A model generated the notes under the pieces. The model saw only the letters and a list, made by a program, of their open reading frames with translations. It was not told the DNA's origin and made no database searches. Of a stretch of DNA of 54,354 bases, positions 14,280-48,302 are shown in pieces. Position 1 is the stretch's first letter. Every line of letters begins with the position of its first letter. The stretch comes from an uncultured Lachnospiraceae bacterium (GTDB lineage: Bacteria > Bacillota > Clostridia > Lachnospirales > Lachnospiraceae), in contig CACZFF010000011.1 in the NCBI GenBank assembly GCA_902780385.1, forward strand, positions 1 to 54,354, in the 5' to 3' direction. Made by a program: the position numbers and the translations under genes.

Positions 14280-16103
14280 ATGGCGGAGGAACTGAAAGAA
14301 AGAAAAGATATGGATCCCGCATTTCAATGGGATCTGACTTCATTATATAAGGATGATGAAGCCTGGGAGGCGGCTTTCGGGCAGCTTGCTCAGAAAGTGG
14401 ATGCCATCGCGGCGTTTGACGGCAAAATAGCGCAGACAGATGGAGACGGCGGAGCTGCCGCAAAGTGCATCCGTGCCCTTATGGAGACGGAGACGGAGCT
14501 CGATCTTCTCCTGAGCGATCTTTTTTCCTATGCAAACCTGCGCAGGAGCGAGGACACACGCGCCTCGCAGGCACAGATCATGTACGCCCGGATCTATGCC
14601 AAATTTGTAGAGGCTGTGACGCGCACGGCATTCATCCAGCCGCAGATCCTTTCTCTCTCGGAAGAGACGCTGCGGGCTGCCATGGAAAAAGAGGACCTCG
14701 CGCCCTATCGTTTTACGATGGAAAAGCTCCTGAGGCAGAAGCCCCACACACTTTCCGAAAAGGAAGAGGCCCTGCTCGCCCGTTTCGGCGAGGTGCTCGC
14801 CGCGCCGGGACTGATCGCCGATAATCTGCAGGATGCGGATATGGTTTTTGATCCGGTAAAAGACGCAGAGGGGCAGGAGCATGAGCTGACGGGTTCGAAT
14901 TATATCCTTCTCCAGACAAGTCCCGACAGGACACTTCGCAAAAACGCTTTTTTCAGTTTCTATAAAGGATACAGGCAGCATATCAATACATTCGCGGCGG
15001 CCTATGCCGGCGCGGTCAAAGCTTCCGCGGCACAGGCTCAGGTGCGCGGATATGCATCCTCGCGCGCCATGTCCATGGCGGAGGAGAATGTCCCGGTGGA
15101 AGTGTATGACACATTGATCGAGACAGTGCGGGCCCACCTTCCGGCCATGTACGAGTATGCGGAGCTTCGCAAAAAGATCCTGTCGCTGGACGAACTCCAT
15201 TACTATGACCTCTACACCCCCCTCACGGGAAGCAGCGGCCGGCAGTACACCTACGAGCAGGCACAGCAGATGGTCCTGGATGCGGTTGCCCCGCTGGGAG
15301 AGCGTTACGGTAATATTGTCCGGGAGGGGTTCGGCTCCCGCTGGATCGATGTCTACCCCAACCGCGGAAAGAGCGGCGGCGCCTTCAGTTCGGGCACCTA
15401 CAACTCCAACCCCTATATCATGACCAATTTCACGGGGACGCTGGACAGTGTCTCCACGATCGCTCATGAGATGGGACATTCCATGCACACCTGGCACTCC
15501 AACCACACACAGCCGCCGCACTATGCGGAATACACACTTTTTGTGGCAGAGGTTGCTTCCACGGTCAATGAAAATCTCCTGGTCGAGCACCTTTTGAAAA
15601 CAGAGAAAGATCCCAAAGAACGTCTGGCACTTCTGAATCAGTACCTGGAAAACTTCAAGGGAACGGTTTTCCGTCAGGCCATGTTTGCAGAATTCGAAAA
15701 GACAGCCCATGAGATGGCAGAGAGGGGCGAAGCCCTCAATCCCGACGCCCTGAATGACCTGTACGCAGGACTGGTGCGCGACTATTTCGGCCCTGTCCTC
15801 ACCATGGACGATGAAGTAAAGTACGAATGGGCGAGGATCCCGCATTTCTACAGACCCTTCTATGTCTATAAATACGCCACTGGCTACACTTCTGCTGTTG
15901 CCCTCTCCGAAGCAGTGAGGACCGGCGGGCAGCAGGCAGTGAACCGCTATCTGGAATTTCTCTCCATGGGCGGAAGCGCGGATCCCCTCGATGAGCTCCG
16001 CCACGCCGGCGTAGATCTGGCAAGCCCCGCCCCCGTGCATGCGGCACTGGAGAAATTTGAGAAAGTCCTGGCCGAAGCAAAAAAACTGGCGGAAAATTTG
16101 TAA
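14280..16103 (+). CDS. pepF: Oligoendopeptidase F (M3 family)
   Basis: A zinc metallopeptidase that cuts short peptides (about 7-17 residues) in the cytoplasm. The protein is 607 residues, the usual length. It carries HEMGH at residues 396-400, the zinc-binding HExxH motif, and a downstream glutamate in the VAEVAST helix as third ligand. The N-terminal oligopeptidase-F domain occupies roughly residues 110-190. Start ATG 14280 has GGAGG 11 bases upstream; an in-frame ATG at 14262 overlaps that site. The 3' end is unusual: about 39-bp units resembling its last codons continue past the stop. Confidence 0.92.
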   Translation: MAEELKERKDMDPAFQWDLTSLYKDDEAWEAAFGQLAQKVDAIAAFDGKIAQTDGDGGAAAKCIRALMETETELDLLLSDLFSYANLRRSEDTRASQAQIMYARIYAKFVEAVTRTAFIQPQILSLSEETLRAAMEKEDLAPYRFTMEKLLRQKPHTLSEKEEALLARFGEVLAAPGLIADNLQDADMVFDPVKDAEGQEHELTGSNYILLQTSPDRTLRKNAFFSFYKGYRQHINTFAAAYAGAVKASAAQAQVRGYASSRAMSMAEENVPVEVYDTLIETVRAHLPAMYEYAELRKKILSLDELHYYDLYTPLTGSSGRQYTYEQAQQMVLDAVAPLGERYGNIVREGFGSRWIDVYPNRGKSGGAFSSGTYNSNPYIMTNFTGTLDSVSTIAHEMGHSMHTWHSNHTQPPHYAEYTLFVAEVASTVNENLLVEHLLKTEKDPKERLALLNQYLENFKGTVFRQAMFAEFEKTAHEMAERGEALNPDALNDLYAGLVRDYFGPVLTMDDEVKYEWARIPHFYRPFYVYKYATGYTSAVALSEAVRTGGQQAVNRYLEFLSMGGSADPLDELRHAGVDLASPAPVHAALEKFEKVLAEAKKLAENL

Positions 16104-16217
16104 AGTCCGGATAAGTAAAAGCGCCTGCAGAAGCCTTGTAAAGCCTTGACAAGCAAAAAGTGTCTGCGGCAGCTTCGTAAAGCTTTGATAAGTAAAAGCG
16201 CTTACGGAAGTATTTTA
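16101..16217 (+). repeat. 39-bp tandem array starting at the pepF stop codon
   Basis: Three units of 38-40 bases begin at 16101, 16139 and 16178, each with TAAAG. The last coding 40 bases of pepF (about 16061-16100) align with them: AAAGTCC at the left, an AAG-AAAA core, and CTG-GG then TTG at the right. The array therefore appears to be derived from the gene end. Confidence 0.75.
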
Positions 16218-16321
16218 TAAGCCTGAAAAAACATAACTGTCCGGAATCCCCCGGCTTCCGGCCAGTCACAGATCCCCGCCTTGCGGGAGCGCAGCAATTT
16301 GATTTCAAAGGGAGGTAAATT

Positions 16322-18826: not shown

Positions 18827-18899
18827 TACCGGCCTCAGCCGGCCGCTTAACCCGGTTTTTCACGCAGAGCAGCGATCCAACAGGATTTGATAAAACCAT

Positions 18900-19598
18900 A
18901 TGATCAATAGAGCGAATCAGATATTAAATAACAGGAGACATCCCGGCGGCAAAAAAGCGCCTCGCCGCCGGGACGCTTCGGATCGTCCTCTCCGGGAACA
19001 AAAAAGCCCGGACCGCGCCGGACAGCTCAACAGGGGATCCCAGCAATGGATCCCCTTTGCTTCCTATTGTACTACAGGGCAGTTTATGGATCTGGAGAAC
19101 GGCTACAAGCGCCACTGCAGCCCGACTGCGGCAGTGAATATCGTCCGCACCCTCAAAAAGTGCCTCGAAGATAATCGCAGACCCAACGAGAGCAGTGACG
19201 AGATGTTCCTACAGTTTGCGGAGATCGGAAGGCGGACCCACATATACTGGAACCAGGACATCCTGGGACACTTCGGGGGCACATCCAATTTCCTGACCGG
19301 CATCTTTCTGCGCAGCTGCCTGCGTGCGGCGGGACTGAAAAAAAGGGTACGGGTGCGTTTTCACCCGTGGATCACTGCGGATGCCGTCGAGAGAGCCCTG
19401 GAACGTGGTTCCATCGTGCTGCTGCAGGTCTACCGCCACCCCAAGTATAAAAATCACCACATGCTCTGCTACGCCTGCAGGAGAACGGATGCCGGAGAAA
19501 GAGAGTTTCTACTGGCGGATGGCTGGAAGCCCGGTCCTCTCTGGGTCGACAGCAAGACCATCGGACACGGCCATTATCTGACCATCCGTCCCGTCTGA
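18900..19598 (+). CDS. C39-like cysteine peptidase candidate, start uncertain
   Basis: Up to 232 residues. The conserved-looking part starts near GQFMDLENGYKRHCSPTAAVNIV and resembles C39/papain-like folds, where a Cys near the start of a helix is followed by His and Asp. Candidates are the Cys of HCSPTAA, the His of HHMLCY and the Asp of LADGW. The first ~60 codons are very Arg/Lys-rich, overlap three DNA hairpins and lack a good ribosome site, so translation may really start at ATG 19086. No signal peptide is visible with either start. It follows the C11 peptidase. Function is a motif-based guess. Confidence 0.5.
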   Translation: MINRANQILNNRRHPGGKKAPRRRDASDRPLREQKSPDRAGQLNRGSQQWIPFASYCTTGQFMDLENGYKRHCSPTAAVNIVRTLKKCLEDNRRPNESSDEMFLQFAEIGRRTHIYWNQDILGHFGGTSNFLTGIFLRSCLRAAGLKKRVRVRFHPWITADAVERALERGSIVLLQVYRHPKYKNHHMLCYACRRTDAGEREFLLADGWKPGPLWVDSKTIGHGHYLTIRPV

Positions 19599-19617
19599 CG
19601 GGTCTGTCTTTTTCCCC

Positions 19618-19664
19618 TTTTTCCAGCACTTTTTCCAGCACTTTTTCCGGCCCTTTTTTCAGCC
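19618..19664 (+). repeat. 12-bp T-rich tandem array after the C39-like gene
   Basis: Units of the form TTTTTCCAGCAC repeat four times with drift (the last is 11 bases), starting 20 bases after the stop. The T runs could also slow or end transcription. Confidence 0.7.
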
Positions 19665-19717
19665 TTTCTTTCCAACATTTTTTCTGCTTTTTTTGCGGAA
19701 TATTTTAAAAAATCTGA

Positions 19718-19747: not shown

Positions 19748-19780
19748 ACATTCGTTGCGGAAAACAGCAACATACAATTC

Positions 19781-19902: not shown

Positions 19903-19926
19903 CTTTCCTGATTATTGCTTTTATGT

Positions 19927-20025
19927 ATCAGCCCCATCAACCGATAAAAAGCCGTATGGAACGCTATCAGCCCCATCAACCGATAAAAAGCCGTATGGAA
20001 CGCTATCAGCCGCATGAAGCGGTCA
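19927..20025 (+). repeat. 39-bp tandem direct repeat
   Basis: Two identical 39-base units (19927-19965 and 19966-20004) are followed by a diverged partial third. There are no spacers, so this is not a CRISPR array. It fills the gap between the tRNA terminator and the HD-domain gene. Confidence 0.9.
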
Positions 20026-28357: not shown

Positions 28358-29949
28358 ATTACTAAAACTTCCCACACCAAAAAGGTGTGAATAACCTTGA
28401 AAACTCAATAATACAGACAATAAAAAGGGCATAGATCCTGTATCTTTGGTACAATTGAATTGTCCAGAAACAACCATACCCAAGGAGGTTTTCTATGCCA
28501 ATTTCAATTCTACCACAGGATCAGGATGGACAGGAAATTTATAACGCAATTTCTTTATTTTTTTCCAATTTTAAGATTGGAAATCTTCTCCGTAAATGCA
28601 ATGCTCAAAAAGAAAAAGGTGTTCCGGTGCTTGATATCTTCAAGTATAAGCACTGCAACGCCTTTTCCGACCGCAGCATGTACATGCAGCAGAAGACCGG
28701 CTCCTTCAAAGAGTCCTTTTCAAAGAATACGTTCTACCGTTTTCTGAACAATCCGAAGATAAACTGGCTGCGCTTTACGACACTTCTTTCAAAAGCGGTA
28801 GCTGATGCTGTCGAGCCGTTAACAGCGGATGACCGTGTCAATGCTTTTGTCGTCGATGACAGTCTGTTTGAGCGCACAAGCTGCAGAAAGACTGAACTCG
28901 GATCCCGCGTGTTTGATCATGTATCGATGAAATACAAAAAGGGATACCGTCTCATGACTGTTGGCTGGACGGACGGGAATACGTTTCTCCCCGTAAACAG
29001 CTGCCTCCTCGCTTCTTCAAAAGAAAGCAACCTCATTGGTCCGGTAGATCATTTTGATGGACGTTCACTGGCTGCAAGACGAAGAAAACTTGCGCAGATG
29101 AAGGGGACAGAGGCTATGATCGAACTGCTGAAATGCGCCCGGTCTGCCGGTCATCGCGCCGACTATGTCCTTTTCGATACCTGGTTCTCCAGTCCGGCCC
29201 AGCTTATTGCAGTGAAAAAACTGGGGCTTGATTCCATTGCGATGATCAAGAAGAGTAACCGGATATACTACGAATATAAAGACGAGCAGTGTTCCATCAA
29301 GAAGATCTTCGGTATCTGTAAAAAACGTCCTGGCCGCAGCAGATATCTTCTCTCCGTAAATGTCATGGTCGGGAAAGATCAAAAGATCCCCGCAAAGATC
29401 GTCTGTGTCCGCAACAAGAAGAATAGGAAGGACTGGATCGCTTTTATCTGTACTAACCCGGATCTCTCCGAAGATGAGATCATCAGGATCTATGGAAAAA
29501 GATGGCAGATAGAGGTATTTTTCAAGACCTGCAAGACATATCTGAACCTGATCACGGAGTGCCATAGCCTCTCTTATGACGCTCTGACAGCTCATACGGC
29601 CATCGTTTTTTCCAGATATCTGATGATCGCGATGGAACAGCGGCGTAACGAGGATGAACGGACCCTTGGAGAGATCTTTTTCTTCTTCACGGATGAATTG
29701 GCGGATATGACTTTCGGAGAATCATTCCAGATCATCCTAAACATCATGATAGACAGTGTTTGCGCCATCTTCCAGCCTACAGAAGAACAATTACAGCTGT
29801 TCATTGACATGTTTGTTGGCCGACTTCCGGAATATATTCGGAACTCACTGGCGAAAGCCGCATTGGCATCTTAAAGATACTATCTGATTGCCTGTATTAT
29901 TGAGTTTTCAAGGTGTAGAGCCCATTTTAGTTATGGGAAGTTTTAGTAA
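28358..29949 (+). mobile_element. IS4-family insertion sequence
   Basis: Terminal inverted repeats TTACTAAAACTTCCCA (from 28359) and TGGGAAGTTTTAGTAA (to 29949) bound the element. A second, subterminal 23-bp inverted repeat (about 28394-28416 with 29892-29914) could fold the transcript back at both ends. ATTATAA flanks both sides (28351-28357 and 29950-29956) as a target duplication. One transposase gene occupies most of the 1.6 kb. Both ends and the gene are intact, so it may be active. Confidence 0.85.
28495..29874 (+). CDS. IS4-family DDE transposase
   Basis: 459 residues. The catalytic triad candidates are D121 (VVDDS), D228 (LFDTW) and E340. The IS4 signature Y-x2-R-x3-E-x6-K is exact: Y333, R336, E340, K347. 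AAGGAGG precedes ATG 28495. The frame is full length with no visible damage. Confidence 0.92.
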   Translation: MPISILPQDQDGQEIYNAISLFFSNFKIGNLLRKCNAQKEKGVPVLDIFKYKHCNAFSDRSMYMQQKTGSFKESFSKNTFYRFLNNPKINWLRFTTLLSKAVADAVEPLTADDRVNAFVVDDSLFERTSCRKTELGSRVFDHVSMKYKKGYRLMTVGWTDGNTFLPVNSCLLASSKESNLIGPVDHFDGRSLAARRRKLAQMKGTEAMIELLKCARSAGHRADYVLFDTWFSSPAQLIAVKKLGLDSIAMIKKSNRIYYEYKDEQCSIKKIFGICKKRPGRSRYLLSVNVMVGKDQKIPAKIVCVRNKKNRKDWIAFICTNPDLSEDEIIRIYGKRWQIEVFFKTCKTYLNLITECHSLSYDALTAHTAIVFSRYLMIAMEQRRNEDERTLGEIFFFFTDELADMTFGESFQIILNIMIDSVCAIFQPTEEQLQLFIDMFVGRLPEYIRNSLAKAALAS

Positions 29950-34315: not shown

Positions 34316-35740
34316 ATGATCAGAATTTACAACACAATGTCGAAACGTAAAGAAGACTTCGTGCCGCTTCATGAAGGCAAGGTCGGGATGTATGTCTGCG
34401 GACCGACTGTCTACAACCTCATCCATATCGGCAATGCGCGGCCCATGATCGTCTTTGATACAGTCAGACGTTATTTTGAGTACCGCGGTTATGAAGTCAA
34501 TTTCGTCTCCAACTTTACCGACGTCGACGACAAGATCATCAACAAGTCGATCGAGGAGGGTGTAGACGCCAGCGTTATTTCCGAGCGCTATATTGAAGAG
34601 TGCAAAAAAGATATGGCGGCGATGAACATCCGTCCCGCCACAACTCATCCCCAGGCGACCCGCGAGATCGGCGGCATGATCGAAATGATCCAGAAGCTCA
34701 TCGATACGGGCTATGCTTATGTCGCAAAAGACGGCACAGTCTACTACCGCACCCGCAAGTTCCGCGATTACGGCAAGCTGTCCCACAAGGACCTCGACAA
34801 CATGCAGACAGGCCTGCGTATGCTGGCAGTCACCGGCGAGGACCAGAAGGAAGATCCGCTTGATTTCGTTCTCTGGAAACCCAAAAAAGAAGGCGAGCCC
34901 TACTGGGAATCCCCCTGGTGCCAGGGCCGTCCCGGCTGGCATATCGAGTGCTCTGTTATGAGCAAGGAATACATCGGCGATACCATCGACATCCATGCCG
35001 GCGGTGAAGACCTTGTCTTCCCTCATCATGAAAATGAGATTGCCCAGTCCGAGGCAGCCAACTGCTGCACATTTGCACGCTATTGGATGCACAACGCATT
35101 CCTCAACATCGATAACCGCAAGATGTCCAAGTCCCTCGGCAACTTCTTTACCGTGCGTGATATTCTGGGCCAGTACGACGGCCAGGTCCTGCGCTACTTC
35201 ATGCTTTCTGTCCAGTACCGCAGCCCCCTGAACTTCAGCCGCGAGCTCATGGAGTCGGCCAAGACTTCCTACGAGCGCATCGTCAACTGCGCCGAAAACC
35301 TCCGCTTCCTGCTCGAGAAAGCTGCAGGCAAGGACACCATGACAGAGGCCGAGGCAGCCCTTCTGCCCGAGGCAGATGCTTTCCGCACCCAGTTTGAGAC
35401 CGCCATGGACGACGACTTCAACACCGCGGACGGCATTTCCGCTGTTTTCGAACTGGTCAAATGGATCAACAGCCACGTGGATGAGAATTCCTCCGCAGCC
35501 TTCCTGAACAAGCTCAATGAAGAGCTCGGGACTCTTACCGATGTCTTCGGTCTCATCCTTGTCCGCGACAAGAGCCTGGACGACGATCTTGCGGCCTACG
35601 TGGAAGCACAGATCGCAGCCCGTCAGGCGGCCCGCAAGGCCCGCGACTTCGCAAAGGCAGACGCCATCCGCGACGAGCTCAAAGCCAAAGGCATCATCCT
35701 CGAAGACACCCGCGAAGGCGTCAAGTGGAAAAAGGCCTGA
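34316..35740 (+). CDS. cysS: Cysteinyl-tRNA synthetase
   Basis: Class I synthetase, 474 residues, the usual length. The HIGH-type motif HIGN is at 37-40, KMSKS at 269-273, and zinc ligands include C28 (VCGP), the WHIECS Cys and the HHENE motif. The C-terminal DALR-like helical part is followed by a basic tail. Start ATG 34316 follows AGAGGGA. The stop codon sits inside a 13-bp tandem duplication. Confidence 0.95.
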
Positions 35741-35761
35741 TCATAAAACCTGATCACAAAA
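35736..35761 (+). repeat. 13-bp tandem duplication containing the cysS stop
   Basis: CCTGATCATAAAA and CCTGATCACAAAA are adjacent; the first contains the TGA that ends cysS. Confidence 0.85.
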
Positions 35762-35774: not shown

Positions 35775-36359
35775 TTGTCAGAAAACAAAAAACGTGACAG
35801 GGGGACAGTCCCCCTGTCACCAGAGACTGCAGAACCCCGTGTACTGCAGCCTGCAGAATACCAAGAGGGCGGCGATGATCGTGCGCCCTCTTTCATGACC
35901 AATGAGACCGGAGAGGCAGAAACGAATATTGCCGCCTCTCTTGCTCTGTTTGGCATGGACGCTGACATCCGGACCTTTTCCCCGCTGGCGCTGGCCTTTC
36001 TGGGGGATGCGGTCTATTCCCTGATCATCCGGACCAGCGTCATCGCAAAGGGGAACAGGCAGGCGGAGAAGCTCCACAATGAGACTACCCGCCTTGTCCG
36101 CGCGCAGAAACAGGCCGCCATCGGAAGGGTGATCTACGATCTTCTCACCACCGAGGAAAAAAAGGTCTACCGCCGGGGCAGGAATTCTCATCCCATGCAC
36201 CACGCCAAGGGTGCCTCGCTGGAAGAATATCTGCAGGCAACCGCTCTGGAAACCCTCTGCGGTTACCTCTACCTGCAGGGCAGAACGGAGCGCCTCATGG
36301 AACTTCTGCGCACCGGGCTTGAGATGACGCAGCGAAGAAACGGTGATCCCCTGCTGTAA
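35775..36359 (+). CDS. mrnC: Mini-ribonuclease III
   Basis: A dsRNA-specific nuclease that matures 23S rRNA ends; it lacks a dsRNA-binding domain. The RNase III core (LALAFLGDAVYSLIIR, then LHNETTRLVRAQKQA, RRGRNS and YLQATALETLCGYLYL) starts about residue 70. The TTG at 35775 has GAGGAA eight bases upstream, but codons 7-16 then run through a perfect 27-base palindrome of the GGGACGG repeat family. Another start, such as ATG 35895, is possible although it lacks a clear ribosome site. It keeps the classic place between cysS and rlmB. Confidence 0.88.
   Translation: MSENKKRDRGTVPLSPETAEPRVLQPAEYQEGGDDRAPSFMTNETGEAETNIAASLALFGMDADIRTFSPLALAFLGDAVYSLIIRTSVIAKGNRQAEKLHNETTRLVRAQKQAAIGRVIYDLLTTEEKKVYRRGRNSHPMHHAKGASLEEYLQATALETLCGYLYLQGRTERLMELLRTGLEMTQRRNGDPLL
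35794..35820 (+). repeat. Perfect 27-base palindrome within the mrnC 5' frame
   Basis: Thirteen-base arms GTGACAGGGGGAC/GTCCCCCTGTCAC flank one A. It is of the GGGACGG family and translates in frame as RDRGTVPLS. Confidence 0.9.
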
Positions 36360-36400
36360 TGCATAAATAATGCAGAAATAATGCAGAAATAATGCAGAAA
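36357..36400 (+). repeat. 11-bp array starting at the mrnC stop
   Basis: TAATGCATAAA, then two TAATGCAGAAA units, then TAATGCAGAAA continuing into CGGTGACTCC. Each unit starts with TAA. The last one resembles the final coding bases (AGAAACGGTGATCCC). Confidence 0.85.
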
Positions 36401-36488
36401 CGGTGACTCCGTGCCGGGAGGGCAGGAAATGCCGCTGTTTCAGATCAGGGCGCAGCTTATATGTTTTTTTGAAAGGAAATAATTGAAA

Positions 36489-37517
36489 ATGCAGGACAGA
36501 CGTCCGGGAAATGACCAAAGGGGAGAGCGGCAGGAAAACCGCCGCGGATCCTTCTCCGGAAAAGAATACAGATCTGACAACTACAGAAGAGAGAGCCGCC
36601 GGGAAGACCGGCGCGAGAGCCGGCCGGACCGCAGCTACAGCAGCCGCCGTGAGGAAGGCCGTGAAGAACGTTGGGAAAACCGCCGGGAAGACCGTCGGGA
36701 AAACCGCCGGGATAATCGTGCAGACAGGGACCAGGACCGCAGAAGAGCGGATGTGGATACCAGGTTTTTTTCCGGTGAGACAGAGCCGGATGAAAACAGG
36801 ATCGAAGGCCGCAATGCTGTCATCGAAGCCTATCGCGCCGGAAGGACTATCGAGAAACTCTTTCTGCTCGAAGGTCCGGCAGAGGGCGCAATGCAGACAG
36901 TGCTGCGCCTGGCTAAAGACCACCATACGCCGGTCCGCTTCCTGACCCGCCAGCGTCTTGACCAGCTGTCCCAGACCGGCAGGCACCAGGGCGTCATTGC
37001 CCAGGCGGCAGCTTTCCGGTATGCAGAGATCGATGATCTCTTTGCCAGAGCTGCGGAAAAAGGAGAGGATCCCTTCTTTGTGCTGCTTGACCAGATCGAA
37101 GATCCCCACAACCTCGGTGCGATCATCCGGACCGCCAATCTCGCGGGTGCCCACGGAGTTATTATCCCCAAAGACCGCTCTGTCGGCCTGACCGCGACTG
37201 CGGCCAAAGCATCCGCCGGCGCCATCCACTACACACCTGTAGTCAAGGTGACCAACCTGGCCCGCACCATGGAAGACCTCAAAAAACGCGGCCTCTGGTT
37301 TGTCTGCGCGGATATGGACGGCACTCCCATGACCCGGCTGTCCATGACCGGCCCCATCGGCCTCGTCATCGGCGCGGAGGGCAGCGGAGTCAGCCGCCTT
37401 GTGAGGGAAAAATGCGATATGACCGCCTCTATTCCGATGAAGGGCGAGATCGATTCCCTCAATGCCTCTGTCGCAGCCGGTGTACTTATGTATGAGATCC
37501 TCCGCCAGAGAGGATAA
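36489..37517 (+). CDS. rlmB: RlmB-type 23S rRNA 2'-O-methyltransferase with Arg/Glu-rich extension
   Basis: SpoU/TrmH-family enzyme that methylates a guanosine ribose in 23S rRNA, using SAM bound in a trefoil knot. The SpoU core is at about residues 100-340: EGRNAVIEAYR, LLDQIEDPHNLGAIIRTA (motif 1), LVIGAEGSGVS (motif 2) and MKGEIDSLNASVAAGV (motif 3). The first ~95 residues are almost only Arg, Glu, Asp, Asn and Ser, and are probably disordered and RNA-binding. ATG 36489 has AAAGGAA upstream; a TTG six bases earlier is also possible. Confidence 0.93.
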   Translation: MQDRRPGNDQRGERQENRRGSFSGKEYRSDNYRRESRREDRRESRPDRSYSSRREEGREERWENRREDRRENRRDNRADRDQDRRRADVDTRFFSGETEPDENRIEGRNAVIEAYRAGRTIEKLFLLEGPAEGAMQTVLRLAKDHHTPVRFLTRQRLDQLSQTGRHQGVIAQAAAFRYAEIDDLFARAAEKGEDPFFVLLDQIEDPHNLGAIIRTANLAGAHGVIIPKDRSVGLTATAAKASAGAIHYTPVVKVTNLARTMEDLKKRGLWFVCADMDGTPMTRLSMTGPIGLVIGAEGSGVSRLVREKCDMTASIPMKGEIDSLNASVAAGVLMYEILRQRG

Positions 37518-38875: not shown

Positions 38876-38941
38876 TCCCTGCTCCTTTTTGGTTTCGGTA
38901 ATTGTTTTTTTTTAGAATTTCTTTTTGGAATTTCTTTTTTG

Positions 38942-38970
38942 AGCCGGACACGCAGATATGCGCTCCGGCT
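38942..38970 (+). promoter_or_regulatory. Hairpin upstream of trmD
   Basis: AGCCGGA/TCCGGCT arms with CGCA/TGCG inside form a strong hairpin 24 bases before the trmD start. Preceded by T-rich sequence. It may be a terminator remnant or a leader structure. Confidence 0.5.
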
Positions 38971-38993
38971 TAAATAATAACAGGAAAACAGAC

Positions 38994-39824
38994 ATGACTA
39001 TTTCTGTACTTACAATCATGCCCGACCTCTTCGGCAGTTTTCTGCAGGCACCTGTCATCGCCCGTGCGGTCAGAAACGGGGTTCTCGAAGTGGAGATCAT
39101 CGATATCCGTGAATATGCGCCCGGAAGCTTTCGCCACATCGACGATTCTCCTTTCGGCGGCGGTGCCGGCATGGTAATGCGGTGCCAGCCGGTCCTCGAT
39201 GCCCTGCGCGCCTGCAAAAACAAAAATCGCACGAATTGCTCTGAAAAACAGACGGGATCGGACAGAATGCCGGAAAGTAAAGATGCGGATCATAAAGATG
39301 CGGATCATAAAGAAGCTCAGCTTTCCGGAAGCGTCTACTCCGTTATCCTCAGTCCCGCCGGTACCCCTTACACCCAGAAGAAAGCGCATGAGCTCTCCAA
39401 TACAGAGCACCTGATCCTGATCTGCGGTCACTATGAAGGCATGGATGCCCGTATTTACCCGCATGCAGATGAACAGATCTCCATCGGCGACTATGTGCTC
39501 ACCGGCGGTGAACTCGCTGCCCAGGTCATCATCGATTCTGTCGCCCGCCTCCTGCCCGGCAGCCTGCGCGATGAAAGCACGCAGGAGGAATCCTTTGAGA
39601 ACGGACTCCTGGAATATCCCCAATATACCCAGCCTGCCGTATACGAAGGCGAGGCCGTACCGGACGTTCTGCGTTCCGGCGACCACGAAAAAATACGAAA
39701 ATGGCGCCTGCAGCAGTCCCTTCTCCTCACCCGTAAAATGCGCCCGGACCTCTTTGAGTCCCACGTGCTGACCGAGGAAGAGAAGGTCCTGTTGGCAGAG
39801 ATCGACAAATGCCCCGGCAGCTGA
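38994..39824 (+). CDS. trmD: TrmD, tRNA (guanine-N1-)-methyltransferase with an insertion
   Basis: Methylates G37 of tRNAs next to the anticodon, using SAM in a trefoil knot. At 276 residues it is about 30 longer than usual. Normal motifs: DLFGSF, FRHIDDSPFGGGAGM, ICGHYEGMDARI, ISIGDYVLTGGEL and NGLLEYPQYTQP. Residues about 75-113 are an extra Lys/Asp/His-rich stretch encoded partly by a 15-bp duplication (39280-39309; HKDAD units). ATG 38994 follows AGGAAA. rimM and rplS, its usual neighbours, are absent here. Confidence 0.93.
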   Translation: MTISVLTIMPDLFGSFLQAPVIARAVRNGVLEVEIIDIREYAPGSFRHIDDSPFGGGAGMVMRCQPVLDALRACKNKNRTNCSEKQTGSDRMPESKDADHKDADHKEAQLSGSVYSVILSPAGTPYTQKKAHELSNTEHLILICGHYEGMDARIYPHADEQISIGDYVLTGGELAAQVIIDSVARLLPGSLRDESTQEESFENGLLEYPQYTQPAVYEGEAVPDVLRSGDHEKIRKWRLQQSLLLTRKMRPDLFESHVLTEEEKVLLAEIDKCPGS

Positions 39825-39917
39825 CCCGGTTACGATTGGCCGAAAGACCATTGGCTGAAAGACCATTGGCTGAATGACCATCGGAGTAATCCTTCAGCAA
39901 AACAGCCCGGCAGCTAA
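39813..39917 (+). repeat. 15-bp array bracketed by copies of the trmD 3' end
   Basis: ATTGGCTGAAAGACC-type units run three times (39835-39849, 39850-39864, 39865-39879). The final codons plus stop of trmD, CCCGGCAGCTGA (39813-39824), reappear as CCCGGCAGCTAA at 39906-39917, beyond the array. Confidence 0.85.
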
Positions 39918-41205: not shown

Positions 41206-41309
41206 ATTCATCCTTAACATTTATCCGGAACATTCATCTGGAAAATTCATCCATAACATTCATCCTTAACATTTATCCGGAACGATCACCCGTAACAAGT
41301 ATCCGGAAT
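41206..41309 (+). repeat. 13-bp tandem array after pepT
   Basis: Eight units of the form ATTCATCCTTAAC or ATTTATCCGGAAC, diverged but in strict 13-base register, begin two bases after the pepT stop. Confidence 0.85.
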
Positions 41310-41312
41310 ACT

Positions 41313-41622: not shown

Positions 41623-42897
41623 ATGGCAGCAACATATAGAAAACCAAATGAAAAGGATCTGTACGCGATTCTTGGCGTAAAGCGTGACGCGGATGCATCA
41701 CAGATCAAAAAAGCATACAGAAAGCTGGCGAAGAAATATCATCCGGATTCCAACGCAGGGAATGCGGAAGCTGAGAAGAAATTCAAGGATATTTCGGAAG
41801 CAAATTCGATTCTCGGAGATCAGGAGAAGAGAAAAATCTATGACGAGTACGGCTATGCCGCTTTTGAGAGCGGTATGGATCCCAAAGAATACGCAAAGCG
41901 CATGGAAGAGGCCAGAAAAGCCGGCTTCGGCGGTTTCGGAGGCGGTTTCGGAAGCGGAGGAGCTGGAGGAAGCGGCGGCTTCGGTGGCTTTGAAGGCTTT
42001 GAGGGATTCCAGGGCTTTAGCGGGACAGGCAAAAACGGAAGATCCGGCGTTTTCCGCGGAAAAGACGGCAACTATACCAGCTTCCATTTTGAGGGCGGAG
42101 ACGGAGAAGATTACAGCAGTATTTTCGAGCAGCTTTTCAGGAATGCGGGCGCGGCAGGAAGTGCAGGCTATAATAACTATAAGGGCGGCAGCTCCGGCAA
42201 TGGCTCCGGAGCAAGCAGATTCCGCAGCTACAGCAGCTCCGCAAACGGAGGGTTCAGTAATGGCGGCGGTAATGCCGGCGCAGGTTACGGCGATTTCCGC
42301 GGGTTCAACGGAGACGGCGGCTCCTGGGGCGCAGCTGAAAACCTGGACGCGGAGTTCCCGGTCACCATTTCCTTTGAGGAGGCCGTTATGGGATGTGACC
42401 GCGATCTCCGCCTGCAGAAAGCGGACGGGAGCGGCACACAGACACTGCGTGTCCACATCCCCGCCGGCATTGACAGCGGCAAATCCGTGCGTCTGCGCGG
42501 CAAGGGAAATATCTCTGCCGACGGCAGCCGCAAGGGTGATCTGCTTCTCAAGGTAACGGTGCAGGAGAGCAGAGAATTCACCCGAAAAGGGCAGGACATC
42601 TATGCGACCGCAAATGTTCCCTTTATGACAGCTGTCCTTGGCGGCGAGGCGGAGGTCCGCATGCCCAACGGCAAAAAGATTGCCTGCAAGATCCCCAAAG
42701 GAACGGATGCAGGCAGGAAGATCCGCATCCGCGGCAAGGGGATCCGTGCCGAAAAGAGCACTGCCCAGCCCGGGGACCTCTATGTCACCGTCCAGATCCA
42801 GGTCCCCAAAGACCTGACCGATGCGGAAATCCGCAAACTCAGAGAGTTCGAAACACTCTATAACGAGCGGACTGCCAAAAGGCCGCACACCGCGTAA
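41623..42897 (+). CDS. DnaJ-like (CbpA-type) co-chaperone without zinc finger
   Basis: An Hsp40 that should stimulate DnaK. J-domain with HPD at residues 40-42, then a long Gly/Phe-rich region (about 100-235), and a DnaJ C-terminal domain (about 240-420; FEEAVMGC, DLYVTVQI). The four CxxCxGxG zinc-finger repeats of DnaJ are missing, so it is class B/CbpA-like rather than the main DnaJ. Start ATG 41623 has AGGGGGTG nearby. dnaK and grpE are not in the window. Confidence 0.9.
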   Translation: MAATYRKPNEKDLYAILGVKRDADASQIKKAYRKLAKKYHPDSNAGNAEAEKKFKDISEANSILGDQEKRKIYDEYGYAAFESGMDPKEYAKRMEEARKAGFGGFGGGFGSGGAGGSGGFGGFEGFEGFQGFSGTGKNGRSGVFRGKDGNYTSFHFEGGDGEDYSSIFEQLFRNAGAAGSAGYNNYKGGSSGNGSGASRFRSYSSSANGGFSNGGGNAGAGYGDFRGFNGDGGSWGAAENLDAEFPVTISFEEAVMGCDRDLRLQKADGSGTQTLRVHIPAGIDSGKSVRLRGKGNISADGSRKGDLLLKVTVQESREFTRKGQDIYATANVPFMTAVLGGEAEVRMPNGKKIACKIPKGTDAGRKIRIRGKGIRAEKSTAQPGDLYVTVQIQVPKDLTDAEIRKLREFETLYNERTAKRPHTA

Positions 42898-42956
42898 AAC
42901 GACGTAAAACAAGCATAAAACATTATAAAACAGTATAAAACATATAAAACAGCATG
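42893..42956 (+). repeat. 10-bp array carrying the dnaJ-like stop codon
   Basis: Units of about 9-11 bases, each with TAAAAC (CGTAAAACGA, CGTAAAACAAG, CATAAAACAT and so on), repeat six times from the stop onward. Every unit contains a TAA. Confidence 0.85.
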
Positions 42957-42997
42957 AAAAAAGCCCCTGTGCCTGTCAAAGACACAGAGGCTTTTTT
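42957..42997. terminator. Bidirectional terminator between convergent genes
   Basis: A run, GCCCCTGTG/CACAGAGGC stem (one mismatch), then T run. It serves both the dnaJ-like gene and the acyl-CoA dehydrogenase. Confidence 0.85.
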
Positions 42998-44221: not shown

Positions 44222-44301
44222 ACATGCCTCCTCATAATAAATGTGGAAAGTGTTGAAGAACTTAGATGCTCTCCAACGAATAAAGTGATTTTCTAATAAT
44301 T

Positions 44302-44330
44302 AGCATACTAACTATCGGAGAAAAATGCAA
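44302..44330 (-). promoter_or_regulatory. Promoter of the acyl-CoA dehydrogenase gene
   Basis: On the minus strand TTGCAT (44325-44330) and TATGCT (44302-44307) are 17 bases apart, about 80 bases before the ATG. Confidence 0.6.
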
Positions 44331-44452
44331 GACTTGTTTGTTAATTTTCTACCACAATATGCACCAAAAATACATGCGTTTTTTTGTGCATTTTTTAAGT
44401 GTACACATGTTTGGCACATGAATCCTGCGTGCAGACGTGTGCTTTTCTACAG

Positions 44453-44517
44453 GTTGTCAGGGGGACGGTTCCTTTGACACCTAAGGAAGGTGTCAAAGGA
44501 ACCGTCCCCCTGACAAC
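44453..44517. repeat. Perfect 29-bp-arm palindrome of the GGGACGG family
   Basis: Arms 44453-44481 and 44489-44517 pair without mismatch around a 7-base loop. It ends 9 bases from the kdpE stop and probably works as its terminator. Confidence 0.9.
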
Positions 44518-44526
44518 ACCAATCTC

Positions 44527-45231
44527 TCACACCTTTTCTGCACGAAGCATCTGGTAGCCGATGCCGATGTGGGTCTCGATCAGGTTGAGACCCGGCTGGG
44601 CAGAGCGAAGCTTTTTCCGCAGGGAGGTCATATAGACGCGCAGGGAGATAATGTCCGTCTCCACACCCCCGCCCCAGATGCGGTCGATGATGAAGGAATG
44701 GGTCAGCACCTTTCCTACATTGGAAGCAAGGAGTGTCAGGAGTCTGTATTCTATGGCAGTCAGATGTACTTCGGTTCCTGCGACGGTGACGATCCGGGAA
44801 GCATAATCAATGACCAGATCTCCGTTGGCAAAGACCGGGCTTTTTTCATCCTTGCTCGCGATATACTGCATCCTGCGCAGGGCGGCGCGGATGCGGGCCA
44901 GGAGTTCCTCGATGGAAAAAGGCTTGGTCAGGTAATCATCAGCGCCGCTGTCCAGGGCCAGGATCTTGTCGCTGTCCTCACCGCGGGCACTGATGATGAT
45001 AATGATGGCAGAAGACCAGGAACGTATAGTGCGGATGACCTCGATGCCGTCAATATCCGGAAGACCCAGATCCAGCAGGATCAGGCCGGGACGATGTGAA
45101 GCGCACAGGGAAACTGCCTCGCTGCCGGTAGAGGCTGCAATATAGGAATAATGATTGATCTTCAGAGTAGTTGTGATCAGGTTCAGGACAGAGCGGTCGT
45201 CCTCCACAACAAGGATTTTCATGTCATCCAT
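44527..45231 (-). CDS. kdpE: KdpE-like response regulator
   Basis: OmpR-family regulator, 234 residues. Receiver domain with D11/D12 and phosphate acceptor D54 (LILLDLGLPD) and K103; winged-helix DNA-binding domain from about residue 135 (LTAIEYRLLTLLASNVGKVLTH). LDLGLPDIDG and the recognition-helix region resemble KdpE. It follows the kdpD-like gene with a 196-base gap filled by a 30-bp array. Confidence 0.9.
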   Translation of the reverse strand: MDDMKILVVEDDRSVLNLITTTLKINHYSYIAASTGSEAVSLCASHRPGLILLDLGLPDIDGIEVIRTIRSWSSAIIIIISARGEDSDKILALDSGADDYLTKPFSIEELLARIRAALRRMQYIASKDEKSPVFANGDLVIDYASRIVTVAGTEVHLTAIEYRLLTLLASNVGKVLTHSFIIDRIWGGGVETDIISLRVYMTSLRKKLRSAQPGLNLIETHIGIGYQMLRAEKV

Positions 45232-45330
45232 TTCAAAGAACCTTCCTGTGATGTAGTTTTATGTCATTTATCCGGAATACCCTGCCGGCATTTTTAACCG
45301 GGCTTTTTACCAGAACCTGCAGTAACTGCC

Positions 45331-45480
45331 GGCTGTATTTCCATGAAGCGGAATCTGTCAGCTGCATTTATATAGAGTTCAAATCCGCGGGCTGCATTCC
45401 CGCAGAATTCAGATCTGTCAGCTGCATTTACATAGAGTCCAAATCCGCGGGCTGCATCTCAGCAGAATCCAGATCTGCCG
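45331..45480 (-). repeat. 30-bp tandem array overlapping the kdpD 3' end
   Basis: Two kinds of 30-base unit alternate in 60-base blocks (45361-45420 and 45421-45480), with a partial block at 45331-45360. The kdpD stop (45428-45430) lies inside. The C-terminal ADLDSxEMQPADLDSM of KdpD is encoded by the array. Confidence 0.85.
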
Positions 45481-47662
45481 CAGGGAGGCGGAAGCGGAAG
45501 AGGGCTCCTGTCGGTTCGTTGTCCAGAACCTCAATACTGCCGCCGTGGGCATGGATGATCTGGGCACACAGGTTCAGTCCGATCCCCATGGAGCGATAAC
45601 TGTCGGTCAGACTCTTTTTGCCATTGTAAAAAAGATCGAAGACATAGGGCTTGTCCTCATCGGAGATGCCTGGTCCCTTGTCGGCGACTTCCACGATGAT
45701 CTGATCTTCAGAGCGCTCCATGTGCACGCGGATCTCCGCACCCGGGGGAGTATATTTCACAGCATTGTTGAGGAGATTGATCATGACCTGCATGATGAGC
45801 TTGGGCTCCATCTCCGCAAAGAAGATCTGATCCTCAGAACCCTGTGTATCAAAGACGATCGGACGGTTGTGATGGGAACTGGCATGCCTCAGACTCTGCT
45901 CGATGACATCTTCCATGTTCTCGATGGTCCTGCGGATGCCGATCCCGCTCTCCAGCCTGGTCATGGAAAGGATGTTTTCAAACTGGGCGTTGAGCCAGTC
46001 CGCATCCTCCATGATATCCTCGTAGATCTTGTCGCGGTCCTCGCGCGGCAGGTCATCTTCGTAGCTGCGCAGGCTGCAGGCATAGCCGTAGATGGACGTC
46101 AGAGGAGTGCGGAGATCATGGGAGATAGAACGCAGAAGACCGGCGCGCAGGCGCTCGTTTTCCGCCCGAATCTCAGCCGTCTGTTTTTCCTGGGCCATGC
46201 GCTCGTTTTCCAGGGCCATAGTGCATTCATGTATGATGGACAGAAGGATGGTATCCTGAAATTCCGTGAGAGGGTGCCCTTCCATGTCGATGCCGATCAC
46301 TCCGTAACGGGTCTCGCCCGAATATACGCTCAGATACCGGCAGGTACAGTCTTTGAACTGCGATGTAAAAGCGCCGGCGGTCTGACTGTTTTTGAAAGTC
46401 CAGCGGACCGCGCCCAGCTCTTTGCCCAGGAGCTCAGGGGAGAGAGTTTTCTCTCCTGCAGGGAAAAAAACAGGACCGCAGGAAGCTTTGGAATGATCTG
46501 AATGATCTAAATGATTTGAATCATTTGAATCATCAGGACTGTCCCTGTTTTCAGGCGGGAAGGCGGGTGCATCCGGGTCCCAGGGGCTGACCGCCGCAAA
46601 ATCCCGGGCAGAAGGATGACCGGAATCGCCTTTATCGTGTCCCAGAGCAGCGGCAGGAGGATAGAATACAACTGCACGGTTGAGCAGGTGCACCAGCTGA
46701 ATACAGGTGGTCCGGATAATGTCCTCTGAATCCTCCGCGCTCTCCAGCTGGTTGGAAGTATCCAGAAGTACCTTTGCCTGATAGGCGTTTTCGGCGGATA
46801 CACGCGCGATATTCTTCATCCGGACGGCGACGGTGCCGGTGATCAGAGCCGCCACCATAGTGACGAGATAGGTCATCATATAGGCCGAATCGTACACCAG
46901 CAGCGTAAATCTTGGTTCAATGAAGAGAAAGTTGAACAACAGAACGTACAGGATCGCGGCAAAGGTGCCGTACACCCGGCTGGAAGTCATGACAGACGCG
47001 ATCAGAACACCGAGTATATAGATCGTGATAATATTTGAGTTACTGAAACGCGATATATAGAACCAGCAGGAGAGAAATGTAGCGACTGCCATGACGGCGA
47101 GCACCAGCAGGAGATCTCTCAGGTTCCAATTCGGGGACCCCGGCCGTATCTGCCGCATATCTTTTGGATAAGAGGAGGATACAGGGTCGGGAACGATGTG
47201 TATATCCACTGTCGGCAGAGCGCTGAGGAGCTTTTCATTGATCGCAGGCTTCGGCAGCAGAGTAAATGAAGGCGGGCTGTATCCCAGAAACAGATCCGTC
47301 ACTTTTTCGCGGCGGGCATATTCGGCGATTGCAAGGGGAATATCCGTACTCTGTATTGTATGTACTTCAAATCCGTAATCCCGGGCGTACTGTATATTTT
47401 CACGAAGAAGAGAGTTTTCCTCCGCTTCACGTCCTGTGCTGCCTACATAGAGGGCGATCGGAGCAGTGCCGGCTGCAGGAGAAGCAGAAGCTGCAGAAGA
47501 TGGTGAAGACAGGGGGACGGGAAAGGCCATCCTGGCTGCTGCGCGTATGACCCGCTTTGTGGTGGGAGACGGAGAAAGGCAGACCATAACAGAAGGGCGG
47601 GAAGCATAACTGCTTTTACCGCCCGTCTCTTCAATATTGCGTCGAATAGGAGAATGTAACAT
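45428..47662 (-). CDS. kdpD: KdpD-like sensor kinase lacking the N-terminal KdpD domain
   Basis: 744 residues: a USP-like domain (about 22-160), DUF4118 four-helix membrane domain (about 180-285), GAF-like region (about 300-480) with a low-complexity Asp/Ser/His insertion (370-392), HisKA with H515 (SISHDLRTPL), and HATPase with N633 (NLLNNAVKYTP), DKGPG and MGIGLNLC. The ~210-residue KdpD domain found in E. coli is absent. An SPS motif begins the USP domain, as in KdpD proteins that bind c-di-AMP. Start ATG 47662 has GGAGGTG; the frame extends upstream without a ribosome site. Confidence 0.88.
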   Translation of the reverse strand: MLHSPIRRNIEETGGKSSYASRPSVMVCLSPSPTTKRVIRAAARMAFPVPLSSPSSAASASPAAGTAPIALYVGSTGREAEENSLLRENIQYARDYGFEVHTIQSTDIPLAIAEYARREKVTDLFLGYSPPSFTLLPKPAINEKLLSALPTVDIHIVPDPVSSSYPKDMRQIRPGSPNWNLRDLLLVLAVMAVATFLSCWFYISRFSNSNIITIYILGVLIASVMTSSRVYGTFAAILYVLLFNFLFIEPRFTLLVYDSAYMMTYLVTMVAALITGTVAVRMKNIARVSAENAYQAKVLLDTSNQLESAEDSEDIIRTTCIQLVHLLNRAVVFYPPAAALGHDKGDSGHPSARDFAAVSPWDPDAPAFPPENRDSPDDSNDSNHLDHSDHSKASCGPVFFPAGEKTLSPELLGKELGAVRWTFKNSQTAGAFTSQFKDCTCRYLSVYSGETRYGVIGIDMEGHPLTEFQDTILLSIIHECTMALENERMAQEKQTAEIRAENERLRAGLLRSISHDLRTPLTSIYGYACSLRSYEDDLPREDRDKIYEDIMEDADWLNAQFENILSMTRLESGIGIRRTIENMEDVIEQSLRHASSHHNRPIVFDTQGSEDQIFFAEMEPKLIMQVMINLLNNAVKYTPPGAEIRVHMERSEDQIIVEVADKGPGISDEDKPYVFDLFYNGKKSLTDSYRSMGIGLNLCAQIIHAHGGSIEVLDNEPTGALFRFRLPAADLDSAEMQPADLDSM

Positions 47663-47697
47663 ACACACCTCCGCATGATCAGCAAATGCAAGCCTGT

Positions 47698-47806
47698 CGA
47701 TCATGTCCATGCCCTGACATCATGCCTGACTCAATCCTGCCGATTTTGTCCATGTCCTGACATCGATCATGTCCATGCCCTGACATCATGCCTGACTCAA
47801 TCCTGC
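47698..47806 (-). repeat. 66-bp tandem repeat with the stop of the small membrane gene
   Basis: Two exact 43-base copies (47698-47740 and 47764-47806) are 66 bases apart. Each contains the TGA that ends the gene at 47797. Confidence 0.9.
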
Positions 47807-48114
47807 TGGCTTTTCCGATGCCTGTAGGAATTGGCCGTGGGAAGGTCTCTGGAAAAATCCTTTCTGGAATGTTCTTCATCTTCCGGTTCCCGGGGATTAT
47901 TTCTGAACATGGTAAAAAAGACATCGGCTTCTGTAGAATCCTGATCATTGATCGTTTTGTTTCGTCCCATTTTTTCACCGGAGCTGCCGCGGGGCTTTTT
48001 GCCTGAATTGCGGCGAATTGTCTTCGCAACCATATAATACACCAATATACCGTATATTGCGAATCCGAGTATTACAATTACATTCTCAGCGAGCAATGTG
48101 AAAAAACCGCTCAT
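47797..48114 (-). CDS. Small single-pass membrane protein in the ktr-kdp cluster, unknown
   Basis: 105 residues: an N-terminal membrane helix (about 8-32), a basic segment RRNSGKKPRG, and a polar charged tail. I do not recognise it. It is too long for KdpF (about 29 residues), and its sequence does not match. It lies between ktrA and kdpD on the same strand. GAGG is 8 bases before ATG 48114; ATG 48120 is too close to it. Being within the operon suggests an accessory or coupling role. Confidence 0.6.
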   Translation of the reverse strand: MSGFFTLLAENVIVILGFAIYGILVYYMVAKTIRRNSGKKPRGSSGEKMGRNKTINDQDSTEADVFFTMFRNNPREPEDEEHSRKDFSRDLPTANSYRHRKSQQD

Positions 48115-48134
48115 CGCCATTACCTCTTTCTAAA

Positions 48135-48302
48135 ATGCCGTATTTCAAAGTAAACCTGAGGTGCTGTATTTCAAAGAAAAAACAAAAATCGTATTTCAAA
48201 GAAAACCTGAAATGCCGTATTTCTTAGAAAACGGTTTCCGTCATGCCGCAGCATTTCCCTGCTGATCAATCAGGGCTGATAGATCAGGGCTGATAGATCA
48301 GG
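48135..48302 (-). repeat. Two tandem arrays between ktrA and the small membrane gene
   Basis: A ~26-base unit containing CGTATTTCAAAG repeats about four times (48135-48236). A 14-base unit GGGCTGATAGATCA repeats about twice (about 48270-48302), just past the ktrA stop. Confidence 0.8.

What the first reader, a model, noticed from the sequence alone, without database searches (positions are those of the whole stretch)
16101..48302. Stop-codon-anchored tandem arrays at many gene ends
At least nine genes, and probably also ktrA, are followed at once by short tandem arrays with different unit lengths: pepF (39 bp), C39-like (12), cysS (13), mrnC (11), trmD (15), pepT (13), the dnaJ-like gene (10), kdpD (30/60), the small membrane gene (66) and possibly ktrA (14 and 26). 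The sequences are unrelated to one another, so this is not one repeat family. In cysS, mrnC, the dnaJ-like gene, kdpD and the small membrane gene every unit carries the stop codon. In pepF and trmD, pieces of the final codons recur downstream. This suggests a process that repeatedly duplicates DNA at gene ends, perhaps replication slippage or repair at transcription-stop sites. Random slippage would not be expected to favour stop codons.
Basis: partly seen in the sequence, partly recalled or inferred. Interest (0 to 1): 0.72.

Follow-up and report, generated by a model that had tools for sequence, protein, structure and literature searches.

The report
Tandem duplications filling gaps after genes
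In one small branch of uncultured gut bacteria, the gaps between genes are being filled with short head-to-tail DNA copies, about ten times more often than in their nearest relatives, mostly just past gene ends, where such copies do least harm.

Summary
The arrays are real. In the window 12 of 41 called gene ends carry a tandem array starting within -60..+30 of the stop, against a mean of 0.18 (maximum 1) in shuffled spacers. The mechanism proposed, a process that seeks out stop codons, is only partly supported.

In six related Lachnospiraceae genomes (clade A, 1.19 Mb), tandem self-similarity is 10.9% within 100 bp past stops, 6.4% in co-directional gap DNA at least 100 bp from both genes, 5.6% in mid-divergent DNA, and 3-4% close to starts. 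So there is a broad, roughly twofold excess past stops, not a sharp peak. A simulation with no stop preference also puts the peak of array edges at the stop: between tightly packed genes no other place is harmless. It does not give the twofold stop/mid-gap difference.

The larger surprise is lineage-specific. Clade A has 291 intergenic arrays in 883 genes (33 per 100); sister clade B 6 in 177; other same-genus genomes 8 in 258; 80 named Lachnospiraceae loci 80 in 1233. Orthologous gaps mostly carry unrelated units. Best reading: a clade-wide rise in short tandem duplication, filtered by selection. The molecular cause is not identified.

The parts
16098..16201 (+). 39-bp array (2.7 copies) starting 6 bp before the end of the pepF-like M3 peptidase gene (stop 16101-16103); each copy carries TAAAG
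19617..19684 (+). 12-bp array (5.6 copies) 18 bp past the stop of the gene ending at 19598 (no Pfam match)
35736..35761 (+). 13-bp array (2 copies) that includes the cysS stop
36357..36400 (+). 11-bp array (4 copies) whose first three bases are the mrnC stop
38905..38939 (+).
39835..39881 (+). 15-bp array (3.1 copies) 10 bp past the trmD stop
41206..41308 (+). 13/39-bp array 1 bp past the stop of the M20 peptidase (pepT-like) gene
42895..42959 (+). 10/19-bp array at the dnaJ-like gene end; TRF start 42905, but by eye TAAAAC units begin at the stop itself
45353..45477 (-). 60-bp array (2.1 copies) that straddles the kdpD-like stop (45428) by 50 bp
47670..47806 (-). 66-bp direct repeat (TRF: 23-bp unit at 47697-47787) that includes the stop of the 107-aa gene 47797-48120
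48261..48303 (-). 14-bp array 30 bp past the ktrA stop (48334)
48133..48232 (-). 26-bp array in the same gap, 101 bp past the ktrA stop and 18 bp before the called start of the small gene
36646..36712 (+). in-frame 12/24-bp coding array in the N-terminal extension of rlmB
39278..39313 (+). in-frame 15-bp coding array inside trmD, in a stretch (about residues 91-126) where the match to several relatives breaks

Best explanation
The window belongs to a clade of uncultured Lachnospiraceae (six species sampled) in which short tandem duplications of roughly 10-50 bp arise, or are kept, about ten times more often than in the sister clade. Most probably the replication or repair machinery of the clade is prone to strand slippage or re-copying; that step is inferred. 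Duplications of any length and sequence arise broadly. Selection removes those that alter proteins (coding arrays are nearly all multiples of three) or the 30-60 bp before a start, and probably thins them in promoters and terminators. In an ancestor with gaps of about 30-50 bp, nearly the only harmless duplication lies between the last codons of one gene and the ribosome site of the next, so arrays look anchored on stop codons. Repeated rounds lengthen the spacers and old arrays decay. Shown: clade restriction, independent units, longer gaps, positional profile, frame filter. Inferred: a raised rate rather than weaker removal; slippage as the molecular step; constraint as the reason why mid-gap DNA has about half the arrays of stop-proximal DNA.
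For: Clade restriction: 291 intergenic arrays in 883 genes (clade A, 1.19 Mb), 6 in 177 (clade B), 8 in 258 (eleven other same-genus genomes), 80 in 1233 (80 named loci); gene ends with an array 119 of 883, 3 of 177, 6 of 258, 36 of 1233. All six clade A genomes are high, 20-51 per 100 genes (G013 and G008 rest on 9 and 10 genes), and form one branch of the CysS tree (100/99). Independent origin: at the cysS end 4 of 6 clade A genomes have an array, each with another unit, and 0 of 6 clade B loci have one. Of 39 conserved gaps G000 vs G009, 10 have arrays in both; 16 of 18 array pairs are no more alike than the 99th percentile of mismatched pairs. Gap growth: cysS-mrnC is 32 bp and mrnC overlaps rlmB in 6 of 6 clade B loci, while the mrnC-rlmB gap is 129, 74 and 185 bp in G000, G013 and G010; median co-directional gap 133 vs 51 bp. 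Source: G009 yfbR and cysS units are copies of the gene's own last codons plus stop. Filter: intergenic periods modulo 3 are 91/106/94, while 202 of 217 coding arrays have periods divisible by 3. All kinds of gap DNA are raised over controls: past stops 10.9 vs 2.8%, mid-gap 6.4 vs 1.9%, mid-divergent 5.6 vs 2.1%. The simulation peaks at the stop with 0.29-0.33 of left edges before the stop end (observed 47 of 189 = 0.25).
Against: The simulation predicts nearly equal recurrence past stops and in mid-gap (0.42 vs 0.42; 0.12 vs 0.10), whereas clade A has 10.9 vs 6.4%; unmodelled constraint or targeting must supply the rest. Left edges at 0-30 bp past the stop are commoner than simulated (58 of 189 = 0.31 vs 0.21-0.23; p 0.015 against 0.23), and in gaps of at least 100 bp 49 of 188 arrays start at or before +10, against 30.9 (sd 4.9) for uniform placement. 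With slow decay the simulation keeps too much repeat DNA (30-60%); faster decay gives 10-12%. Its median gap is too low (59-93 vs 133 bp). No repair defect was found: PolA 5' exonuclease and MutS in 25 of 25 genomes, MutL in 13 of 14, RecJ and ExoVII in 14 of 14. Not every clade A gene end has an array: rlmB 0 of 6, sigma 3 of 6. Units are A-rich on the sense strand, unexplained.
Confidence: 0.6

Rival explanations
1. The duplication process itself is biased to transcribed DNA past stop codons (transcription ends, uncoupled RNA polymerase, R-loops), so gene ends are true hot spots, about twofold over other gap DNA.
For: Recurrence within 100 bp past stops is 10.9% [8.8-13.0] in co-directional and 11.5% [8.9-14.6] in convergent gaps, against 6.4% [4.6-8.5] in mid-gap and 5.6% [3.5-7.9] in mid-divergent DNA; the neutral simulation does not give this. 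Left edges near stops exceed both nulls. Units are A-rich on the sense strand, AT skew 0.11-0.35 vs 0.04-0.09 in array-free DNA.
Against: Mid-gap and mid-divergent DNA are also raised about threefold over controls, and coding arrays are common (217 in clade A), so duplication is not confined to gene ends. Promoters and terminators could thin arrays in mid-gap by selection. Controls show no clear stop/mid difference (2.8 vs 1.9%, overlapping intervals).
Confidence: 0.25
2. The mutation rate is normal, but selection against extra DNA is weak in clade A (small populations), so ordinary slippage products persist.
For: Larger gaps and lower coding density in clade A (0.82-0.87) than in clade B (0.89-0.92). 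Controls show the same kind of event at a low rate: gene-end re-copying in 15 of 665 vs 1 for mismatched pairs.
Against: Coding and start-proximal DNA are still filtered (202 of 217 coding periods divisible by 3; 4.0% in the last 60 bp before starts). G014 has long gaps (median 114 bp) but 4 arrays per 100 genes, and some other relatives with low coding density in their short stretches have few arrays, so extra spacer alone does not bring arrays.
Confidence: 0.2
3. The arrays are kept because repeated stop codons act as a fail-safe against read-through and frameshifts.
For: Several window units repeat the stop, and periods of 10, 11 and 13 bp put stops in all frames.
Against: No period preference modulo 3 (91/106/94) and no excess of sense stops in units that start past the stop, relative to array-free DNA. 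The stop is in the unit because the duplicated stretch includes it.
Confidence: 0.04
4. Assembly or binning artefact.
For: One G009 array contains a run of N, and all genomes are drafts of unknown type.
Against: Six genomes with different arrays all fall in one branch of the CysS tree, while other fragmented relatives have few. Coding arrays keep frame.
Confidence: 0.02

Closest known systems
Minisatellites/VNTRs made by slipped-strand mispairing (general knowledge; typing papers seen only in the listing)
   Same: Head-to-tail units of about 10-60 bp, 2-5 copies, between genes or in frame inside genes, sequences unrelated to each other
   Different: Density about ten times that of near relatives (20-51 intergenic arrays per 100 genes) and confined, in the genomes sampled, to one branch; copy-number variation within a species not tested
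Bacterial satellites of Subirana and Messeguer (passages of PMC8625621 seen; their 2020 J Bacteriol paper is not held)
   Same: Tandem repeats found in few species, with variable sequence
   Different: Those passages give a constant repeat length of 52 nt as usual; here the period runs from 10 to 47 bp (5th-95th percentile)
MIRU and similar dispersed intergenic repeats (recalled, not tested against a sequence)
   Same: Sit at gene junctions and can overlap stop codons
   Different: They are one dispersed sequence family; here units at different gene ends are unrelated
Duplication-prone replication mutants such as loss of FEN1/Rad27 in yeast (recalled)
   Same: Would produce short local duplications of arbitrary sequence
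   Different: The bacterial counterpart domain (PolA 5' exonuclease) is present in 25 of 25 genomes; whether it works was not tested

Membership tests
Slippage-type tandem repeats (minisatellite/VNTR) | Head-to-tail copies of a short unit beyond chance | tested here: met
   12 of 41 window gene ends vs 0.18 in shuffles
Slippage-type tandem repeats (minisatellite/VNTR) | Copy number varies between strains | not testable with these tools
   One genome per species is held; between species the arrays mostly differ altogether
Slippage-type tandem repeats (minisatellite/VNTR) | Coding copies keep frame, non-coding copies do not | tested here: met
   202 of 217 vs 91 of 291 periods divisible by 3
One dispersed repeat family (MIRU-like) | Same sequence at many sites | tested here: not met
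   Most significant 6-mer AAATAA is in 15 of 197 units, GAAAAA in 22; only words of 4-6 bases were tested
Constant-length bacterial satellites | Fixed repeat length (52 nt in the passages seen) | tested here: not met
   Period median 16, 5-95% range 10-47 bp
Stop-codon-targeted element or process | Peak of arrays at the stop itself beyond position effects | tested here: inconclusive
   Broad twofold excess over 100 bp past stops and an excess of left edges at or before +10, 49 vs 30.9; but straddling arrays 30 vs 23.0 sd 4.2, and a left-edge peak at the stop also comes from the neutral simulation
Fail-safe tandem stop codons | Excess of sense-strand stops in units | tested here: not met
   5.55/4.16 sense/antisense per 100 bp vs 4.17/3.35 in array-free DNA

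The most novel reading that the evidence does not exclude
One branch of Lachnospiraceae carries a heritable 'short tandem duplication' mutator state, a change in replication or repair machinery, that has rebuilt many of its gene spacers within the time in which its CysS proteins diverged by about 3-13%, and that acts about twice as strongly on transcribed DNA just past stop codons.
Probability: 0.3. Interest if true: 0.7.

Novelty: new variant of a known kind. Interest (0 to 1): 0.42.

Why it matters
Bacterial spacers are usually thought to shrink by deletion (general knowledge). Here is a branch where they have grown by tandem duplication while its sister stayed compact, so that a gene junction that is an overlap in the sister clade becomes 70-190 bp of species-specific DNA. 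It offers a natural experiment on what limits short tandem duplications in bacteria. It also shows how a selection filter can mimic a sequence-targeted process: between packed genes, harmless duplications must land at stop codons.

Tried and rejected
Loss of known duplication-suppressing genes, by family presence. PolA 5' exonuclease PF02739 and MutS PF00488 were found in 25 of 25 genomes. Ku PF02735 was in 0 of 14, MutL PF01119 in 13 of 14 (the miss is G010, 75% complete), RecJ_OB PF17768 in 14 of 14, ExoVII PF02601 in 14 of 14. None explains the clade. Y-family polymerases left only a lead: a DinB class scoring E 1e-42 or better is in 7 of 8 non-A and 0 of 6 clade A genomes (Fisher p 0.005). 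It could be one loss in one ancestor, or a diverged copy; I assigned classes only by score and hit length.

A shared motif in the units: only A-rich words, CCGGA and ACAG come up, none in more than a minority of units. Extra stop codons as the function: no excess. One mobile or dispersed repeat: units unrelated.

A reading of mine that I withdrew: I first took mid-gap DNA to be as repetitive as stop-proximal DNA. Its bins overlap (a base 150 bp before a start is often within 100 bp of a stop). One search, with non-overlapping classes, shows 10.9 vs 6.4%, so I lowered the filter model from 0.7 to 0.6 and raised the targeted rival from 0.15 to 0.25.

Literature: searches listed no paper that describes this clade or stop-proximal arrays, judged by title and start of abstract (searches returned none; one search listed 10 of 196 and 15 of 17). 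Beyond listings I saw only passages of PMC8625621. The library lacks most subscription journals, and PMC7549362 is not held.

Rows left out: L157 (G007, 3.0 kb) was fetched but put in no rate table. G011 and G015 (no mrnC match) have no stretch in the comparison. G001, G002, G005, G006, G018-G020 and G022 are in the rates but not in the pooled controls. L022 and L023 in the named set are close to clade B and to G018, and L042 equals G001 at CysS. One search kept the best 80 of at least 593 loci. Gene calls are from my own codon-score ORF caller, so starts are approximate.
Full report
OBSERVATION. With my gene calls, 12 of 41 gene ends in the window have an array (score 40 or more) starting within -60..+30 of the stop; 60 runs with shuffled spacers give a mean of 0.18 and a maximum of 1. 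Unit lengths at these ends are 11-60 bp by TRF and sequences are unrelated. The unit contains the stop codon at cysS, mrnC, dnaJ, kdpD, the 107-aa gene and also pepF. The window is array-rich even for its clade: 12 of 41 ends against 119 of 883 over all clade A sequence, window included.

WHERE IT COMES FROM. The window is contig C11 of a 3.30-Mb, 96-contig draft. Its CysS matches Lachnospiraceae, best named record 79%. Among 24 genomes of the same genus, G013, G010, G009 and G008 have CysS 91-97% identical and G017 87%. With G000 these six form one branch, support 100/99 (the bootstrap had not fully settled); I call it clade A. G003, G012, G021, G023, G024 and L022 (CysS 78-80%) form clade B.

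LINEAGE RESTRICTION. With one pipeline, clade A has 291 intergenic arrays in 883 genes (33.0 per 100), clade B 6 in 177 (3.4), eleven other same-genus genomes 8 in 258 (3.1) and the 80 named Lachnospiraceae loci 80 in 1233 (6.5). Singly, clade A genomes range from 20 to 51 per 100 genes (G013 and G008 rest on 9 and 10 genes). Median co-directional gaps are 133 bp in clade A, 51 in B, 61 in the other same-genus genomes and 37 in the named loci. G014 has long gaps (median 114 bp) but few arrays (4 per 100). Of the 80 named loci 38 have none, and the richest have 5 arrays in 16-19 genes, so single rich loci occur elsewhere.

ORTHOLOGOUS GENE ENDS. In clade B the cysS-mrnC gap is 32 bp and mrnC overlaps rlmB in 6 of 6 loci. 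No array lies at the cysS, mrnC or rlmB ends; the sigma end has one short array in 1 of 6 (G003). yfbR and trmD do not follow there and were not compared. In clade A arrays are present at cysS in 4 of 6, mrnC in 3 of 6 (one, in G017, may lie in the rlmB N-terminus), rlmB 0 of 6, sigma 3 of 6, yfbR 4 of 5 and trmD 3 of 5 genomes with a readable end. The mrnC-rlmB gap is 129, 74 and 185 bp in G000, G013 and G010, where both flanking genes align from their ends; larger figures for G009, G008 and G017 may include unaligned N-termini. At cysS the units are 13 bp in G000, 21/22 in G009, 68 in G008 and 18 in G017 (the last 131 bp past the stop and perhaps inside the mrnC N-terminus). In G009 the cysS and yfbR units are copies of the gene's own last codons plus stop. 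Of 39 conserved gaps between G000 and G009, 16 have no array, 8 only in G009, 5 only in G000 and 10 in both (Fisher p 0.055). Two of 18 array pairs in shared gaps score above the 99th percentile of mismatched pairs (scores 19 and 14; null maximum 19); none of 9 pairs does for G010, none of 5 for G017.

POSITION. The share of bases in a 10-mer that recurs 7-90 bp away steps up at the stop: 0.4-1.8% in the coding DNA before the last 20 bp, 3.0-4.7% in the last 20 bp, 7-13% in the next 160 bp (shuffled spacers 0.1%). The bins overlap between stop and start sides, so I repeated it with separate classes. Clade A, co-directional gaps: 10.9% [8.8-13.0] within 100 bp of the stop and at least 100 bp from the next start; 6.4% [4.6-8.5] at least 100 bp from both; 6.4% at 60-99 bp before the start; 4.0% in the last 60 bp. 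Convergent gaps within 100 bp of a stop: 11.5%, middle 6.9%. Divergent gaps: middle 5.6%, within 60 bp of a start 2.8%. Controls: 2.8, 1.9, 3.0 and 2.4% in the same four co-directional classes. So all gap DNA is raised in clade A, and DNA past stops about twice as much as other gap DNA. In co-directional gaps of at least 100 bp, 49 of 188 arrays start at or before +10, against 30.9 (sd 4.9) for uniform placement; those straddling the stop number 30 against 23.0 (sd 4.2).

FILTER. Intergenic periods show no frame (91/106/94 modulo 3), while 202 of 217 coding arrays are multiples of three. Units that start past the stop have no excess of sense stops over array-free DNA. The last 25 bases of a gene are re-copied downstream in 28 of 639 clade A ends (3 in mismatched pairs) and 15 of 665 control ends (1); the first 25 bases are re-copied upstream in 11 of 639 (5) and 7 of 700 (4). 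The same kind of event thus exists elsewhere at a lower rate.

MECHANISM. A duplication of stretch i..i+p keeps the upstream protein if i+p lies at or beyond its stop, and keeps the downstream ribosome site if i lies at least 30 bp before the start. With a 32-bp gap, as in clade B cysS-mrnC, i can lie at most 2 bp past the stop: every harmless duplication is 'stop-anchored'. Simulating this with random letters, compact starting gaps and no stop preference gives left edges that peak at -15..0, with 0.29-0.33 of them before the stop end (observed 47 of 189 = 0.25) and 0.21-0.23 at 0-30 bp (observed 58 of 189 = 0.31). With slow decay it leaves too much repeat DNA (30-60%); with faster decay 10-12%. 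It gives too low a median gap (59-93 vs 133 bp), and it does not give the twofold difference between stop-proximal and mid-gap DNA. Promoter and terminator constraint, which it lacks, or a bias of the process to transcribed 3' DNA could supply that; I cannot separate the two. It shows that much of the anchoring needs no special process, not that the model is complete.

CAUSE. None shown. The repair families tested do not separate the clades. One DinB class separates them and is a lead only. Weak selection instead of a raised rate remains open.

VERDICT. The inference that slippage cannot favour stops is not: packing and selection give much of it, and a broad twofold excess past stops remains. 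What is most unusual is a single-branch, roughly tenfold rise of short tandem duplications that has rebuilt gene spacers.

Noticed in passing
G000, G008, G009, G010, G013, G017 against G003, G004, G012, G014, G016, G021, G023, G024: A DinB-type polymerase class (PF00817 E 1e-42 or better) is found in 7 of 8 non-clade-A genomes and 0 of 6 clade A genomes; a possible correlate of the duplication phenotype.
   Followed up: partly
array units in clade A and control gaps: Units are A-rich on the sense strand of the neighbouring gene in co-directional gaps (AT skew 0.11-0.35 in clade A vs 0.04-0.09 in array-free DNA), also in controls; not explained.
   Followed up: partly
window 35775-36359, 36483-37517, 38958-39824: MrnC and RlmB carry N-terminal extensions (about 60 and 100 aa) that clade B relatives do not align to, and the TrmD match breaks near residues 91-126 in several relatives; coding arrays lie in rlmB and trmD, so proteins may also have grown by in-frame duplication.
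   Followed up: partly
window 19926-20015: A 39-bp array of 2.3 copies, 98% matches, in mid-gap between tRNA-Thr and the next gene: a fresh array not attached to a stop codon.
   Followed up: no
window 28495-29874 and 51941-53704: Two transposase genes (DDE_5/DDE_Tnp_1 and IS66-type).
   Followed up: no
window 7298-12964: 1888-aa protein with SpaA and T-Q ester-bond domains and a 27/54-bp coding array at 10757-10870.
   Followed up: no
window 1-54354: The window is about twice as rich in gene-end arrays as all clade A sequence sampled (12 of 41 vs 119 of 883), so density varies along the genome.
   Followed up: no
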